Assembly: GCA_018649665.1 (NCBI GenBank)
Contig: JABIHL010000082.1
Location: 1 to 44,392, forward strand
Reading direction: 5' to 3'
DNA: 44,392 bases
Origin: Chloroflexota bacterium
GTDB lineage: Bacteria; Chloroflexota; Dehalococcoidia; Lucifugimonadales; Lucifugimonadaceae
In this document: positions 1,579-21,435 of the stretch, piece by piece
Numbering within the stretch: position 1 is the first letter of the stretch
How the letters are laid out: each line of letters opens with the position of its first letter
Notes under the pieces: generated by a model
The model's database searches: none
The model's input: the letters and a program-made list of their open reading frames with translations, nothing else
Told to the model about the DNA's origin: nothing
Program-made: the position numbers and the translations under genes

Positions 1579-1616
1579 TCTATAAGTAGCTCTTCAGACG
1601 CGTGTCCGCTGGGGCG

Positions 1617-1622
1617 GATAAT
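1617..1622 (+). promoter_or_regulatory. Putative -10 box (GATAAT), possibly leaderless transcript
   Basis: GATAAT at 1617-1622 ends only 4 bases before the ATG at 1627. Initiation at the normal 6-9 nt distance would place the transcript start on or next to the start codon. No Shine-Dalgarno sequence is present, which agrees with leaderless translation. A weak -35 (TTCAGA at 1593-1598) is possible. This is inference from position and consensus only. Confidence 0.4.
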
Positions 1623-1626
1623 ACGG

Positions 1627-2274
1627 ATGAGTTCGAAACTTCCACAAACAAGTCGGTCGGTCATCGCAATCCTATTGGTTGTGGTGTTTTCTCTTGTGCT
1701 CGCTTGCGGCTCGGAATCTGTCGCTGCTACACCGGTGCCGAATACGCCAGCAGCAGCAGCGTCGCCTTCTACTACGATACCCGATCCTACCGAACCGCCT
1801 CTCGTCAACACGCCCGGTCCTGTCTCCAACATTGCGCCCGATTTCAAGCTGCCATCGATTCAAGGCGCTGAGTACACCCTTTCTCAGTTCCGGGGCGAAC
1901 AGCCAGTTGTTGTCGTGTTCTACCGAGCGTACTGGTGAACATTTTGCAGAAGGCAACTCGGGAAGTTGCAACGATCTCAGGCTGAACTTGATTCGAGTGG
2001 TGTACAAATACTCGCAATCAGCACCGACAATCTCGATGGTCCAGCTGCTCTGGCCGCGGCTCAAGGGTATGAATTTCCAATTCTGTTCACCGCGCTCGAT
2101 CCGAGCATCCCTGAGCAGTACGGCGTATTCGATCTGTTTGGCGACGGACTCGCGTCGGCATCAGTATTCTTAATCAACAAAAACGGCGAGATCGTATGGC
2201 AGAGCGTTGGATTGAACTACACACACCAAGTCGAAGCCGAAGAAATCATCGAGCAGGTCGAAAAGCTCGGCTAG
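1627..2274 (+). CDS. Predicted selenocysteine-containing peroxiredoxin-like lipoprotein (UxxC)
   Basis: One continuous reading frame of 215 residues if the TGA at 1936-1938 is read as selenocysteine (Sec104). Residues 1-27 form a lipoprotein signal (hydrophobic run, then VLAC with Cys27), followed by a Pro/Thr/Ser linker. An AhpC/TSA domain starts at about residue 69: APDFKLPSIQG, then VVVVFYRAYW, Sec, TFCRRQL, then ILAISTDN and the closing SVFLINKNGEIVW. Relatives of the PRX-like2 type carry Cys-x-x-Cys exactly here, so Sec replaces the attacking Cys and Cys107 is the resolving partner. The downstream half stays in the same frame and is fully conserved in style. A stem-loop at 1953-1969 fits a bacterial SECIS. 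The protein probably reduces peroxides or thiols at the outer face of the cytoplasmic membrane. The alternative is a nonsense mutation of a TGC/TGT codon. The selA/B/C/D genes are not in this window. Confidence 0.82.
1953..1969 (+). promoter_or_regulatory. Candidate bacterial SECIS stem-loop
   Basis: GCAACT (1953-1958) pairs perfectly with AGTTGC (1964-1969) around the 5-nt loop CGGGA (1959-1963). The loop begins 20 nt after the TGA at 1936-1938. Known bSECIS elements have a short upper stem, a small apical loop with a G in its first two positions, and about 16-37 nt between UGA and loop. All three conditions are met; the G is the second loop base. It would bind SelB and allow Sec insertion at codon 104. 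Confidence 0.65.
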
Positions 2275-2284
2275 ACTCTTCAGC

Positions 2285-2896
2285 GTGAATATCCGAACAC
2301 TCTCAACAATCGCAATCCTGCTCGCGCTGTTCGCTACAGTCGCCTGCTCGAGCCCGGCCACCTCAACACCAACGGTGGAACCAAGCCCGACACCCAGCGC
2401 CACGCCAACAATCGCACCAACCGACAGCGACGCGCTACCGATAGCACCTGTGTTCTCGGTTTCAACAATTGACGGCGAAAATATCCGACTTGAAGACCTA
2501 CTTGGCGTCACACCTGTTTATCTAGTGTTCGTTCCAACCACGACCAATGAACTCGACATCTCACAGATGCGCTTCATCCAATCGCAAATTTCAGAATTCG
2601 ATGAGCTAGGCGCCGAGGTTGTTGTCGTAATTTCCGATCAGCCGACAAGAGTTATCGAGATGCGAGATGAACTTGGACTCGAATTCCCCCTCATCGCCGA
2701 TCCGCTCAATGTTGTTGCAAGCGATTGGCAAGTGTTCGATCTGAACAACTCCGGAGAAAGCAGTCCTGCCAGCTTCGTGTTCGATGCCCACGGCGGTCTG
2801 TTAGCACGGCTCATCGCTACCGATCCAAGCAATCGACCAACCGTCACTGAAGTGCTTTCGGTGATTGAAGAATCGCTCAGTGTAGGCGCAGCTTAG
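2285..2896 (+). CDS. Peroxiredoxin-fold lipoprotein lacking the active-site cysteine
   Basis: 203-residue protein starting at GTG 2285, ten bases after the selenoprotein stop, so probably co-transcribed. Residues 1-21 form a lipoprotein signal ending in TVAC, followed by a Thr/Pro linker. The mature part follows the AhpC/TSA layout: APVFSVSTIDGENIRLEDL, then PVYLVFVPTTTNELDISQM where the FYRxxWC/UxxC site should be, then VVVVISDQP, EFPLIADP and ASFVFDAHGGLLARL. The segment after the VYLVFVP strand has no Cys and no TGA, so the catalytic residue is gone. The only cysteine in the protein is the lipidated one. It is likely a paralogue of the upstream gene that became a structural or binding partner. 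A redox function is not supported. Confidence 0.75.
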   Translation: MNIRTLSTIAILLALFATVACSSPATSTPTVEPSPTPSATPTIAPTDSDALPIAPVFSVSTIDGENIRLEDLLGVTPVYLVFVPTTTNELDISQMRFIQSQISEFDELGAEVVVVISDQPTRVIEMRDELGLEFPLIADPLNVVASDWQVFDLNNSGESSPASFVFDAHGGLLARLIATDPSNRPTVTEVLSVIEESLSVGAA

Positions 2897-8679: not shown

Positions 8680-9314
8680 ACAAGCTCTTTCCTAGCGGTA
8701 ACGGCGGTGGCTCAGAAGGCACTCCATGGCTGGTTGTCGGCTTGGGGAATCCTGGGCCTGAATACAAAAACACCCGACACAACGTCGGATGGTGGTCTCT
8801 CGACGAACTCGTCAAACGCACCAACGCCGAACTGAATCGAAAGCGCAAAGAAGTACGATTCGCCGAAGTTGAACTCGGAGGGTCAGCTGTCGTTCTCGCC
8901 TACCCAAGAACGTTCATGAACCGCTCTGGAATGGCTCTCAGCTACCTCACGAATCGGTTCAAAACTACTCCCGACAAAATCCTAGTTGTCACCGACGATA
9001 TAAACCTGAATCCTGGTTCTGTGCGTATACGAAAGCAGGGCGGCCCCGGTGGGCACAACGGTCTGAAATCGATCATCACATCACTCGGCACGAACGAGTT
9101 TCCGCGAGTTCGAATAGGAGTTGGGAATCCGGAATCGTCGGCAGTACAGGTAGATCACGTTTTGGGTACTTTCGACCCGGATACACGAGACTTGGTCAAA
9201 TCGGCAGCCGAACGTGCAGCCGATGCCATAACGATGATCGTCAGCGGCGAATTCGACAACGCAATGAACAAATTCAACGCCAAGCATAATGGCGACAAAC
9301 CACTATCAAAGTGA
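8658..9314 (+). CDS. pth: Peptidyl-tRNA hydrolase
   Basis: Releases peptides from stalled peptidyl-tRNA so the tRNA can be recycled in the cytoplasm. 218 residues from TTG 8658. Signature segments are WLVVGLGNPGPEY (N31), TRHNVGWW with catalytic His41, TFMNRSG (N88), VTDDINLNPG (D113/D114) and GGPGGHNGLKS (N134), all in the right order. About 23 residues precede the usual family start, including a Gly/Ser stretch. No better start codon lies between, so the TTG within the upstream gene is used, giving a 22-base overlap and likely translational coupling. The TGA stop overlaps the following ATG (TGATG). Confidence 0.93.
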   Translation: MDVSSLLDKLFPSGNGGGSEGTPWLVVGLGNPGPEYKNTRHNVGWWSLDELVKRTNAELNRKRKEVRFAEVELGGSAVVLAYPRTFMNRSGMALSYLTNRFKTTPDKILVVTDDINLNPGSVRIRKQGGPGGHNGLKSIITSLGTNEFPRVRIGVGNPESSAVQVDHVLGTFDPDTRDLVKSAAERAADAITMIVSGEFDNAMNKFNAKHNGDKPLSK

Positions 9315-11449
9315 TGTCGCAAATTTTAGACTTCCGCCGTCTGCGGATCAGCTCGCCAAAGCCACTGTACGTAATCAGCCTAATCGCTTTGGTCGCTGCC
9401 GTAATTGGGTGCAGCGCTCCTGTCGCAGATGCCGAACCAACTGCCGCCGCAGCAGTCACTTCACTATCGGCAACCGCCGCGCCACTACCAACGGCGACGA
9501 CTTCATTCGCAACTCCCACATCGGAAAAATCACCTTCACCAACCACCAAAGCTCAAATACCTAACCCAGAGTCCACACAAAATTCTGCCGACCAATCTCA
9601 ACCAACTCAAATCTCGCCAACAGTACCAACAGCAACAGAACAACCCACTGCCACCCGAACGCCGTTCCCAACCAGAGTTCCAACAGCCACACCAGTATTC
9701 GTACCAGCGCAGCCCGAACCGATCATCCCTGCCCCTCCCGAACGCGATTTACAAGAACTGGGCAGGCGACTCGTTCCCGGCTACACCGACCCGAAAACGG
9801 TCGTAGCATCAGAACCTCTCGAAGTTGGCGACGACGTAAATTTCTGGGTGTCGAGGGACATCGGTAGCGTGACAGTAAACGGCACGGTTTCTCATATCTC
9901 AGAACACGTTTACTGGGTATTCGAAACCGGCTATGAACCAGATCCAAACGACATCGAAGATGTCGCCAACAATTTCGAAACTGATGTTTGGCCGGCCGTT
10001 ACTCAAGTTTTCGGAACGCCCCTAACACCCGGGATAGATGGCGATGATCGAATGGTCGTTTACACAGCGGTTCTGCGATCTGGAGTTGCCGGTTATTTCT
10101 CGGCTGCCGACTCATATCCAAAAGAGATTCGCTCACACTCGAACCAACGAGAAGCCCTCTATATGTCTGCCGACAGGGTCAATCTCACGGGCAGAGAATA
10201 CTTAAGCGTGATCGCTCACGAGTTACAACACGCTACTCACTTTGCAACCGACAATAGTGAAGACTCGTGGATCAACGAAGGACTTTCGGAAGTGGCTGCT
10301 GAGATCGCCGGATTTGCCAGATCGGCAGCTTCGGCGTTCGTTCGAGCACCCGCAACATCGCTCACTGCTTGGGCGCAAGATATTTCTGTTTCAGCCGCCA
10401 ACTACGGAGCGGCAAATCTGTTTTTTGCGTTCCTTGCCACCCACTATGGTGGCAACGATATGATCGCGGCTATTGCCCAAAATCAGGCTGACGGAATCGA
10501 GTCAGTTGATCTCACTCTTGCCGAACATGGGTTCGATGTAACAGCCAACGACGTGTACGCCGATTGGCTCGTCGCCAATTATCTCAGCACGAGCGAAGGC
10601 CCCTACTCGTATAAGGATCACTTCGTTCCGCCTGTTCGAAATGTCTACAAACGCGCTCCCGATTCACTCACAGGATCGGTCAAGTCTTACGGCGCCAACT
10701 ATGTTGTGACTTCGAGCGGTTCGGGCAACATGTCAATCGAATTTCAGGGCGAGCCGACGACATCGCTACTAGACACTGAACCGCATTCTGGTGACACATG
10801 CTGGTGGTCGAACCACGGCGATTCTATCGACACAAAATTGACTCGAAATGTCGATCTTAGGTCGGTCGATTCAGCCTCACTAACGTTCTGGGTCAACTAC
10901 AACATCGAAGAGTTTTGGGACTATGCCTATGTGATGGTATCCAACGACGAAGGCAGCACCTGGGACATTCTCGACACCGAGCGCGCCATCAATTTCGACC
11001 CAAACGGCAATGGCTACGGCGCCGGACTTACGGGAAAAAGTCTCGGCTGGGTTCAAGATTCGGTCGATCTTTCTGATTACGCAGGTGAACAGGTATTACT
11101 CAGGTTTGAATACATCACCGATGACGCCGTATTTTCAACAGGCGCGTGCTTCGACGATTTCGAAATTCCTGAACTCGGATGGACTGACGACACATCGACA
11201 ACAGCCGACTGGATCGCCGACGGATTCGTGAGAGTCGAAGAGACCATCCCAACGCAGTATCTCGTTCAGGTTATTCACGAAAAAGACGTTGGCGATCCGG
11301 TTGTCTATCAAGTTCCTGTCAATTCGAACGGTGCAGGAAACCTGACAGTCGAGAACGTCGGCGACGACGATCTCGTAGTATTTATCATCAGCGCAACGAA
11401 TCGCCAATCTACGTCGCCAACGAACTACACGCTAGAAATCCGACCGTAG
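9314..11449 (+). CDS. Secreted M30-like zinc metallopeptidase lipoprotein
   Basis: 711 residues from ATG 9314, which overlaps the pth TGA. Residues 1 to about 34 form a lipoprotein signal ending in VIGC, followed by about 100 residues of Ala/Thr/Pro/Ser-rich linker. The catalytic domain carries HELQHATHF (His302, Glu303, His306) and SWINEGLSEVAAE (Glu322 in NEG), the gluzincin arrangement typical of the M30 hyicolysin family. The C-terminal half contains a beta-sandwich region resembling immune-inhibitor-A type domains (CWWSNHGDSIDTKL, then SASLTFWVNYNIEEFWD and a Cys-Phe-Asp-Asp-Phe segment). It probably degrades extracellular protein while tethered to the membrane. The stop abuts the serS stop without a gap. 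Family assignment is by motif, so M6 is an alternative. Confidence 0.8.
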   Translation: MSQILDFRRLRISSPKPLYVISLIALVAAVIGCSAPVADAEPTAAAAVTSLSATAAPLPTATTSFATPTSEKSPSPTTKAQIPNPESTQNSADQSQPTQISPTVPTATEQPTATRTPFPTRVPTATPVFVPAQPEPIIPAPPERDLQELGRRLVPGYTDPKTVVASEPLEVGDDVNFWVSRDIGSVTVNGTVSHISEHVYWVFETGYEPDPNDIEDVANNFETDVWPAVTQVFGTPLTPGIDGDDRMVVYTAVLRSGVAGYFSAADSYPKEIRSHSNQREALYMSADRVNLTGREYLSVIAHELQHATHFATDNSEDSWINEGLSEVAAEIAGFARSAASAFVRAPATSLTAWAQDISVSAANYGAANLFFAFLATHYGGNDMIAAIAQNQADGIESVDLTLAEHGFDVTANDVYADWLVANYLSTSEGPYSYKDHFVPPVRNVYKRAPDSLTGSVKSYGANYVVTSSGSGNMSIEFQGEPTTSLLDTEPHSGDTCWWSNHGDSIDTKLTRNVDLRSVDSASLTFWVNYNIEEFWDYAYVMVSNDEGSTWDILDTERAINFDPNGNGYGAGLTGKSLGWVQDSVDLSDYAGEQVLLRFEYITDDAVFSTGACFDDFEIPELGWTDDTSTTADWIADGFVRVEETIPTQYLVQVIHEKDVGDPVVYQVPVNSNGAGNLTVENVGDDDLVVFIISATNRQSTSPTNYTLEIRP

Positions 11450-19122: not shown

Positions 19123-19980
19123 TTATCCGAGCGGCTTGCTTGCCTTAATCGTCAGGCTCTTCACCAGATGCCGCCACTCTTCTGTCCCGTTCGGACCCGG
19201 TCGTTCGTCGACAATCTCAACATCGACGAATCCAGCAGATTCGATCATACGAAGATATGCGCTTCGAACGGCCGCACCACCGACACCCTCAACCCACTGA
19301 CCTGTCGAATCTCGGATGCTGTCAGGGAGCAATTCGTCGGTTACAAGATCGGATATTACGAATCGACCGCCGGGTTTCAACACTCGGAACATCTCGGAGA
19401 ACACCATGTGTTTCCATTCCGATTGCGAAATAACGCCGTTCGAAATAACGAGATCAACCGAAGTCTCATCCTGAGGAATCTGCTCGATATGACCTCGTTT
19501 GAAAACGACGTTGGCTAATTCGAGCTTCCTGGCATTGTCGCGAGCAAGACTGACCATTCGAGGCGTCATATCGACACCGATCACTCGCCCCGAGTCGCCA
19601 ACCGAGCTCGATAGCAGCAAGCAGTCGATACCGCCACCTGATCCAAGATCGAGAATCGTTTCGCCAGCGACAACATCGGCGTAAGCCAAAGGATTACCGC
19701 TTCCAGTCGAAGCACCAGCGGCTTCGTCGGGAATGATCGAGCATTGCGAATCGGAATAAAACTTGTCCGAAGCCTTGTTTTCAGAAGCTTCAAGCCCACG
19801 TTTACCGGCGCGCTCGGCGAGGGCGCCGTAGCGTTGCTTCACAGCGTTCGTGAGGTCTTTCGCATTGCCAGAAAGTACCACGGCTTCGAAATCACAGCAG
19901 CCCGATCCGCAGCACCCGTTCTCGGTAATCGAACTACCGTAATCGGGCGAGACAAAAACGAACTTGCGGGCTTCAGCCAA
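19123..19980 (-). CDS. ArsM-like SAM methyltransferase lacking the arsenite-binding cysteines
   Basis: 285 residues from TTG 19978-19980, with GGAG eight bases upstream. The SAM site [16 protein letters not shown] and the ArsM-type blocks [32 protein letters not shown] and VGGAA match the neighbouring ArsM along the whole length. However, the three positions that hold arsenite in ArsM are changed: Ser94 (neighbour Cys90), Gly182 (Cys178) and Gly232 (Cys228). The N-terminal CCGSGCC cluster (Cys23/24/28/29) is kept. It is therefore a diverged tandem copy that should still bind SAM but probably methylates something else, or has a regulatory role. A terminator at 20114-20150 separates it from the upstream ArsM, so it has its own transcript. 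Confidence 0.82.
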   Translation of the reverse strand: MAEARKFVFVSPDYGSSITENGCCGSGCCDFEAVVLSGNAKDLTNAVKQRYGALAERAGKRGLEASENKASDKFYSDSQCSIIPDEAAGASTGSGNPLAYADVVAGETILDLGSGGGIDCLLLSSSVGDSGRVIGVDMTPRMVSLARDNARKLELANVVFKRGHIEQIPQDETSVDLVISNGVISQSEWKHMVFSEMFRVLKPGGRFVISDLVTDELLPDSIRDSTGQWVEGVGGAAVRSAYLRMIESAGFVDVEIVDERPGPNGTEEWRHLVKSLTIKASKPLG

Positions 19981-20165: not shown

Positions 20166-21011
20166 TTATTCAGCAGGCTTGAACGCTCGTAGAGTGAGAT
20201 TGATCATTGACGATCGCCACTCTTCAGTTCCACCCGTGCTTTTCCGATCTTCGAGAATCTCAATCTTGTCGAAACCGGTCTCTTCGACCATAGCGAGATA
20301 ATCGCTCATCACAGCGGCACCGCCGACACAGCTTACCCACTCGGCTGCCGATTTTCGAACGTCGTCAGGAAGCGGCTTGTCGGTAACAATGTCGGAAATC
20401 ACAAACCGACCACCGGGCTTGAGAATCCGGAAAATTTCCGAGAAAACCCGTTCTTTCTGCTCGGACAATGCAATCACGCAGTTCGATATCACCAAATCTA
20501 CCGAGTCATCTTCCTGAGGAATCTGCTCAATGTGCCCTAGCTTGAAAACCACGTTTGTCGTCTCGAGTTTTTCTGCGTTAGTGCTTGCAAGTTCAAGCAT
20601 TCTCGGGGTCATATCTATACCGATAACCGAACCCGTTGGTCCAACTTCTTTAGCGGCAAGGAAACAGTCAATACCGCCTCCAGAACCAAGATCGAGAACA
20701 GTCTCGCCAGTCTTGGCGTCGGCAATTCCAACCGGGTTCCCGCAACCAGCTGAAGCACCGGCAGCCTCATCTGTGAGTACCTCGCGTTGCTCTTCGGTAT
20801 AGAGCCGATCAGTAGCCTTGTTGGTCTGTGAAGCTCGTTCACCTGCCCGATCCGCGAGAGCGCCATATTCGTGTTGAACAGCCGCAGTAATCGAGTCAAG
20901 TTGTGCATGAGTAATCTCGGTACTTTCGCCATCGCCGCAGCAATCGTCGCCACAGCAGGCAGCTTCTTCGCTGATTGGCGTCAATGTGCCAAAGGGTTTG
21001 TTAGTCGTCAT
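20166..21011 (-). CDS. arsM: Arsenite methyltransferase
   Basis: Transfers methyl groups from SAM to As(III), giving methylarsenicals. 281 residues from ATG 21009-21011, supported by GGAG about nine bases upstream; the frame stays open 20 codons further but into padR. It has the SAM motif [22 protein letters not shown], and the cysteines that define the family: SAGCGNP (Cys90), ISNCVIALS (Cys178) and SCVGGAA (Cys228). An additional N-terminal CCGDDCC cluster (Cys19/20/24/25) may collect metalloid. It overlaps the end of the PadR gene by 11 bases and is very likely co-translated and regulated by it. A terminator follows directly. Confidence 0.92.
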
Positions 21012-21435
21012 CTGCTTGCTCTCCAAAAATGCTGGAATCAATAACCGTTGTCGTGCAGCAGGCAGTCTCAACGCCCGCTTCCTTCACCGCCGTTTCAAGC
21101 TGCGGCAATACGCTTGACCATGCCTGAGCCGAAGCTCGGTAAGCATCGTTGCCCAACGCAGAAAGCGAATAGTTCTTCCGCTTTCTGCCGTTCACCACAA
21201 CCGTTTCCAACTCTACGTAACCGCCAGTCTCTAACTCCTTCAACATTGGGTAGATCATGGCGTCGGTTGGTCGGGCATCACAGCAAAGCGCTATTCGAGT
21301 GCCGATCTCATAGCCGTGCATCGGTCCACTACTCAGCTGCTGCAACATGAAAAATCTCAGTAGACTTTTTCGGTTAAGCGACTGCCAATAGTCGATGCTA
21401 GCTAGATCATTTGTCGGCTTCGTTGAAGTGGTCAT
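21001..21435 (-). CDS. PadR-family regulator with two Cys-Cys pairs (candidate arsenic sensor)
   Basis: 144 residues from ATG 21433-21435; the frame continues upstream to 21663 but that part is not protein-like. It carries a winged-helix domain with the PadR pattern FFMLQQLSSGPMHGYEIGTRI, then IYPMLKELETGGYV and GRKRKNYSLSALG, followed by a short C-terminal helix. Cys51-Cys52 lie in the DNA-binding domain and Cys126-Cys127 in the tail, so thiol binding of As(III) could change DNA binding, as known for ArsR-type sensors but by inference here. It overlaps arsM by 11 bases and lies divergent to polA. A palindrome sits just upstream in its own leader. Confidence 0.87.
   Translation of the reverse strand: MTTSTKPTNDLASIDYWQSLNRKSLLRFFMLQQLSSGPMHGYEIGTRIALCCDARPTDAMIYPMLKELETGGYVELETVVVNGRKRKNYSLSALGNDAYRASAQAWSSVLPQLETAVKEAGVETACCTTTVIDSSIFGEQADDD

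What the first reader, a model, noticed from the sequence alone, without database searches (positions are those of the whole stretch)
1627..2274. Selenocysteine-containing peroxiredoxin-like lipoprotein with a UxxC site
A lipoprotein AhpC/TSA frame is interrupted by TGA exactly where relatives have the attacking Cys of CxxC (FYRAYW-TGA-TFCRRQL), and the same frame then continues to a complete domain end. Automated callers will split it into a 103-residue fragment and a second ORF starting at TTG 1966. TGA is a stop elsewhere in the window, so recoding is specific. A membrane-anchored, outward-facing Sec-peroxiredoxin in this lineage would be a notable redox defence enzyme.
Basis: partly seen in the sequence, partly recalled or inferred. 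Interest (0 to 1): 0.88.

Follow-up and report, generated by a model that had tools for sequence, protein, structure and literature searches.

The report
Selenium-containing membrane-anchored redox lipoprotein
A Chloroflexota bacterium carries a cell-surface redox enzyme gene whose internal stop codon is read as selenocysteine at the active site; it belongs to a known type of selenoprotein, but this lineage has multiplied it into many copies and keeps a relative without redox residues beside it.

Summary
The finding holds. Window 1627-2274 is one gene interrupted by an in-frame TGA at 1936-1938 (codon 104). The genome has selA, selB, tRNA-Sec (anticodon UCA) and a selD with its own in-frame TGA. 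TGA is invariant in 12 same-genus sequences and present in 132 of 173 aligned homologs; others have Cys there. A 6-bp hairpin 17-33 nt after the UGA is kept by paired synonymous changes (Gln CAA/CAG with Leu TTG/CTG: 106 Watson-Crick, 16 wobble, 1 mismatch), as a bacterial SECIS would be. I accept selenocysteine insertion, without direct protein proof.

One correction: 'peroxiredoxin' is too specific. U104 aligns with the Thr of the peroxiredoxin PxxxTxxC motif, not with its peroxidatic Cys; the site is the thioredoxin-like W-U-x-x-C. It fits the known 'Prx-like, UxxC' selenoproteins, so it is a new member of a known kind.

Beyond the finding: (1) this order and a second Chloroflexota group carry many such genes, often in tandem; (2) the next gene (2285-2896) is a paralog lacking both active-site residues, syntenic in the genus, placed beside Cys forms near a Sec clade, and kept where the Sec gene has decayed. 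Its role is unknown.

The parts
1627..2274 (+). Sec-containing redoxin lipoprotein gene, 215 residues, UGA read as Sec at codon 104, true stop TAG 2272-2274
   Evidence: PF00578 across the TGA; gapless orthologs with TGA
1627..1707 (+). signal peptide with lipobox LVLA-C, lipidated Cys27 predicted
   Evidence: read from the sequence; orthologs have Cys at the same place, e.g. TTACG, LVACG; no signal-peptide program was run
1936..1938 (+). TGA codon for Sec, first residue of the U-T-F-C redox motif
   Evidence: invariant in 12 same-genus sequences; TGA in 132 of 173 aligned homologs, Cys in 19
1945..1947 (+). Cys107, partner Cys of the UxxC motif
   Evidence: invariant in alignment A1
1953..1969 (+). 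bacterial SECIS-like hairpin GCAACU-CGGGA-AGUUGC, 5-nt apical loop with G, 17-33 nt after the T of TGA
   Evidence: synonymous-codon null and covariation
2285..2896 (+). downstream paralogous lipoprotein with AhpC-TSA domain in which U is Asn and the second Cys is Asp; no Cys except the lipobox
   Evidence: PF00578 E 3.6e-17; conservation; tree, synteny
1593..1622 (+). weak promoter-like site just upstream of ATG 1627, possibly a leaderless start
   Evidence: about as many expected by chance (0.7 per shuffle), so suggestive only

Best explanation
The gene encodes a membrane-anchored, extracytoplasmic thioredoxin-fold selenoenzyme. SelB brings Sec-tRNA-Sec to the UGA at 1936, directed by the hairpin at 1953-1969 inside the coding sequence. 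The protein is exported and lipidated at Cys27, so that its domain faces outward. U104 is the attacking selenolate; Cys107 three residues on resolves the intermediate as a selenenyl-sulfide, which an unknown reductant opens again. The substrate is most likely a hydroperoxide or a protein disulfide at the cell surface. Shown here by sequence evidence: gene structure, Sec machinery, TGA conservation, selection on the hairpin, fold class. Inferred: Sec insertion itself, lipidation, catalysis, substrate and reductant.
For: Sec machinery in the same genome. TGA conserved while true stops vary, with coding-type substitutions on both sides. Homologs with Cys at the same position in Acidobacteria and in other Chloroflexota. 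The hairpin is held against synonymous codon choice: mean 5.63 of 6 pairs versus 4.00 (sd 0.09) in the null; 67% fully paired versus 5%. Codon covariation 57/49/16/1, with 6.2 phylogenetically independent pairs in the expected direction and 0 against (median p 0.03). Of 62 genomes with a strong TGA-bearing match 58 have selA, against 58 of the 87 others, Fisher p 1e-4. In one genus member the gene has decayed by deletion and frameshifts (G001) and in another only remnants remain (G012), so an intact frame means selection. AlphaFold2 gives a thioredoxin fold with U104 just before helix 105-116; Foldseek finds Bcp4, ResA and AhpE.
Against: No direct evidence of Sec in the protein. The single-sequence fold of the hairpin is not unusual against shuffles (z 0.12), so the SECIS case rests on the comparison. 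The QL..LQ amino acids themselves favour a palindrome; the synonymous null addresses this, but assumes independent sequences. No DsbD/CcdA-type reductant was found in the genome, which is about 86% complete. Four genomes with the gene lack a selA match (74-88% complete).
Confidence: 0.93

Rival explanations
1. The TGA is a real stop and the gene is a pseudogene, or two separately translated fragments.
For: Automatic calling with table 11 gives two ORFs. Real decay of this gene occurs in two related genomes.
Against: TGA is invariant across the genus orthologs and in 132 homologs; the downstream frame is gapless and changes mainly at third positions; the fragments would split a thioredoxin domain at its active site; Sec machinery is present.
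Confidence: 0.02
2. A finer reading of the best explanation: the enzyme is a Sec-peroxidase proper, which reduces hydroperoxides at the cell surface.
For: PF00578/PF08534 membership; fold matches Bcp4 and AhpE; the GLASASVFLI strand resembles AhpE GIANAGTFVV.
Against: The Prx motif PxxxTxxC is absent (R100 and U104 instead of Pro and Thr); U104 aligns with the Thr of true Prxs, and C107 with their peroxidatic Cys.
Confidence: 0.45
3. The other finer reading: the enzyme is a thiol:disulfide oxidoreductase of TlpA/ResA type that handles protein disulfides outside the membrane.
For: W-U-x-x-C motif, lipoprotein anchor, ResA and DsbE among the best structural and sequence matches.
Against: The cis-Pro position typical of TlpA/ResA appears to be Ala or Ser here (DGLASASVFLI against DGIPHPSIFIL in Cys homologs); no DsbD/CcdA found.
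Confidence: 0.4
4. UGA is read as another amino acid (a reassigned or suppressed code).
For: None beyond the read-through itself.
Against: TGA ends other genes in the window and ends two of the orthologs; tRNA-Sec(UCA), selA, selB and selD are present; Cys in homologs at that place.
Confidence: 0.01

Closest known systems
Prx-like (thiol:disulfide oxidoreductase) selenoproteins, PF00578, UxxC (Sargasso Sea and GOS sets; PMC1088965, PMC2398784; review PMC13188914)
   Same: AhpC/TSA domain, thioredoxin-like UxxC instead of the TxxU of Sec-Prx, in-gene hairpin with a G in a small apical loop, Cys homologs
   Different: Those papers describe the family from metagenomes; here it is a lipoprotein in one Chloroflexota lineage, multiplied and in tandem. 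I could not compare their sequences directly.
SelL-related redox protein, NCBIfam NF040769
   Same: best NCBIfam match, residues 70-146, 51.3 bits
   Different: far below the curated cut-off of 120 bits
Rcas_1661 family thioredoxin-like (seleno)lipoprotein, NCBIfam NF041057
   Same: also a Sec-capable lipoprotein; the name points to a Roseiflexus (Chloroflexota) gene (my knowledge)
   Different: 18.9 bits against a cut-off of 190, residues 17-109 only; a separate family
Thioredoxin-dependent peroxiredoxin PrxU, NCBIfam NF040737, and Sec-Prx with TxxU
   Same: AhpC/TSA fold
   Different: in the TxxU peroxiredoxins Sec is at the peroxidatic position, three residues later than here; 28.4 bits against 270 for NF040737

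Membership tests
Bacterial selenoproteins | in-frame UGA conserved against Cys or UGA in homologs | tested here: met
   132 TGA, 19 Cys, among 173 aligned sequences
Bacterial selenoproteins | Sec-decoding genes selA, selB, selC, selD in the genome | tested here: met
Bacterial selenoproteins | hairpin just after the UGA, small apical loop with G | tested here: met
   loop G in 102 of 107; described feature in PMC1088965. Rfam found no match
Bacterial selenoproteins | selenium in the purified protein | not testable with these tools
   needs 75Se labelling or mass spectrometry
Prx-like UxxC selenoproteins (PF00578) | AhpC/TSA domain with UxxC | tested here: met
   PF00578 87.5 bits, cut-off 26; U104-T-F-C107
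Peroxiredoxin sensu stricto | PxxxT/SxxC motif with peroxidatic Cys or Sec | tested here: not met
   RAYWUTFC; U104 aligns with Thr of true Prxs
SelL-related redox protein NF040769 | score over the curated cut-off | tested here: not met
   51.3 against 120 bits
   no CDD search at hand; motif resemblance is from memory only
Bacterial lipoprotein | hydrophobic signal with lipobox Cys | tested here: inconclusive
   read by eye, conserved in orthologs; no dedicated predictor run

The most novel reading that the evidence does not exclude
The Sec lipoprotein and the redox-dead paralog beside it form a two-part extracytoplasmic system: an active selenoenzyme and a pseudo-redoxin that descended from a Sec enzyme through a Cys stage, and that now serves as a docking, regulatory or substrate-binding subunit. 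The same lineage has an order-wide radiation of Sec redoxin lipoproteins in tandem arrays.
Probability: 0.3. Interest if true: 0.65.

Novelty: new member of a known kind. Interest (0 to 1): 0.5.

Why it matters
Automatic annotation splits these genes at the active site, so a lineage rich in selenoenzymes looks poor in them. Three papers on prokaryotic selenoproteomes that I searched do not mention Chloroflexi in their main text (not a full literature survey). Sec, Cys and redox-dead copies lie close together on one tree, which makes the loss of Sec in a duplicated gene directly testable. The codon-covariation test used here can help tell a read-through UGA from a stop.

Tried and rejected
Pseudogene or sequencing error: rejected. 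Recoded genome: rejected. Rfam for the hairpin: no match at E 5. Single-sequence folding of the hairpin: uninformative, replaced by the synonymous-codon null. DsbD/CcdA as reductant: not found. Other in-frame TGA joins with a redox-like motif in the window: only 1936 lies in a recognised domain; the others look like frames opposite or beside annotated ORFs and were not tested further. In one search the aminotransferase query was translated in a wrong frame; the hits still mark the same DNA region because the DNA is similar, but those identities should not be used.

Full report
OBSERVATION. The frame 1627-2274 translates to 215 residues with one TGA at codon 104 (1936-1938) in FYRAYW-U-TFCRRQL. 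Table 11 splits it at that codon. PF00578 covers residues 67-191. The neighbouring genes are a class-V aminotransferase upstream and, downstream, a second AhpC/TSA lipoprotein (2285-2896) and a convergent DUF1015 gene.

SEC MACHINERY. The genome (2.65 Mb, 180 contigs, about 86% complete) has selA over the curated cut-off (529 bits), selB over the cut-off (320 bits), tRNA-Sec with anticodon tca (66 bits) and selD (366 bits). selD has an in-frame TGA of its own; reading L031 from 1481 gives MSDKPVRLTELATCAGUAGK. Three other matches to the protein in this genome have an in-frame TGA, among them FYRGGWUPYC in L069 and a TxxU peroxiredoxin in L072.

CONSERVATION. The window and 11 other genus members align without a gap over 149 codons around the TGA. 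Substitutions by codon position are 358/242/1337 before and 1464/847/3857 after it. Codon 104 is always TGA, whereas the final stops are TAG, TAA or TGA. L005-L008 from public assemblies look like the same genomes as four of these and are not counted twice. Over the order and phylum, 132 of 173 distinct aligned sequences have TGA there and 19 have Cys; most of the rest are the partner or true peroxiredoxins with Thr or Ser there. Genomes with a strong TGA-bearing match nearly always have selA: 58 of 62, against 58 of 87 others (test; the counts were made by hand from the two tables).

SECIS. A hairpin GCARCU-N5-AGYUGC lies in the same register after the UGA in nearly all copies. Because the amino acids QL..LQ would give a partial palindrome anyway, synonymous codons were resampled with the genes' own usage: the null forms 4.00 of 6 pairs (sd 0.09), the real genes 5.63; fully paired 67% against 5%. 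The third base of the Gln codon covaries with the first base of the Leu codon: CAG-CTG 57, CAA-TTG 49, CAG-TTG (G-U) 16, CAA-CTG (mismatch) 1. On a protein tree the independent comparisons go 6.2 in the expected direction and 0 against, median p 0.03. The apical loop has G at its second place in 102 of 107, as described for bacterial SECIS elements (PMC1088965). The window's hairpin alone is not exceptionally stable.

FUNCTION. The AlphaFold2 model (pLDDT 73.9 overall, above 80 over most of the domain) is a thioredoxin fold with U104 just before a helix. Foldseek's best matches include Bcp4, ResA and AhpE. Aligned to true peroxiredoxins, U104 takes the place of Thr and C107 that of the peroxidatic Cys. 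The active site is thus thioredoxin-like on an AhpC/TSA body. Both a peroxidase and a thiol:disulfide oxidoreductase remain possible; I put them at about equal odds.

PARTNER GENE. The gene 2285-2896 has Asn and Asp where the Sec gene has U and C. It sits beside the Sec gene in the genus orthologs, and the order aminotransferase, Sec gene, partner, DUF1015, ligA is kept in L005-L008. The 12 partner sequences form one clade (support 99). Their nearest rows are four copies with Cys at the U position, and these together lie next to FYRGFFUGIC Sec copies (supports 93 and 89, quick tree). This suggests Sec to Cys to redox-dead, but the tree is unrooted. In G001 the Sec gene has lost codons 101-153 and carries frameshifts, in G012 only remnants remain, and in both the partner is intact; in G011 a deletion fuses the leader to the rest of the partner. 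So the partner does not depend strictly on the Sec gene. Its AlphaFold2 model has low to medium confidence (63.2).

EXPANSION. Relatives carry up to three such genes in a row, e.g. L054, L056, L060, L063, and a second group in the phylum (f74) also has several per genome.

STATUS. The kind is known: Prx-like UxxC selenoproteins were described from the Sargasso Sea and GOS metagenomes (PMC1088965; PMC2398784) and are listed in a 2026 review (PMC13188914). This is a new member, with an unusual genomic setting.

Noticed in passing
window 2285-2896: Redox-dead paralog next to the Sec gene, conserved in the genus and kept in two species that lost the Sec gene.
   Followed up: partly
L031 1481-2538 (G000:C168): selD of this genome carries an in-frame TGA at its active site, so it is itself a likely selenoprotein.
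   Followed up: partly
L068, L069, L072 (G000:C167, C9, C180): Further redoxin-like genes with an in-frame TGA in the same genome.
   Followed up: no
window 19123-19980 and 20166-21071, minus strand: Two arsenite-methyltransferase-like genes in a row; one passes the NF008823 cut-off (277 against 263 bits), the other does not (238).
   Followed up: no
window 9311-11449: Large lipoprotein-like gene with an immune-inhibitor-A-like MAM domain (PF20773).
   Followed up: no
L054, L056, L060, L062, L063, L064: Tandem arrays of up to three Sec redoxin lipoproteins.
   Followed up: partly
L164 (G011:C2): A deletion appears to fuse the leader of the Sec gene to the C-terminal part of the partner.
   Followed up: no
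L008 5730-5732: TAA in the leader or linker of the partner gene in one species; decay or assembly error.
   Followed up: no
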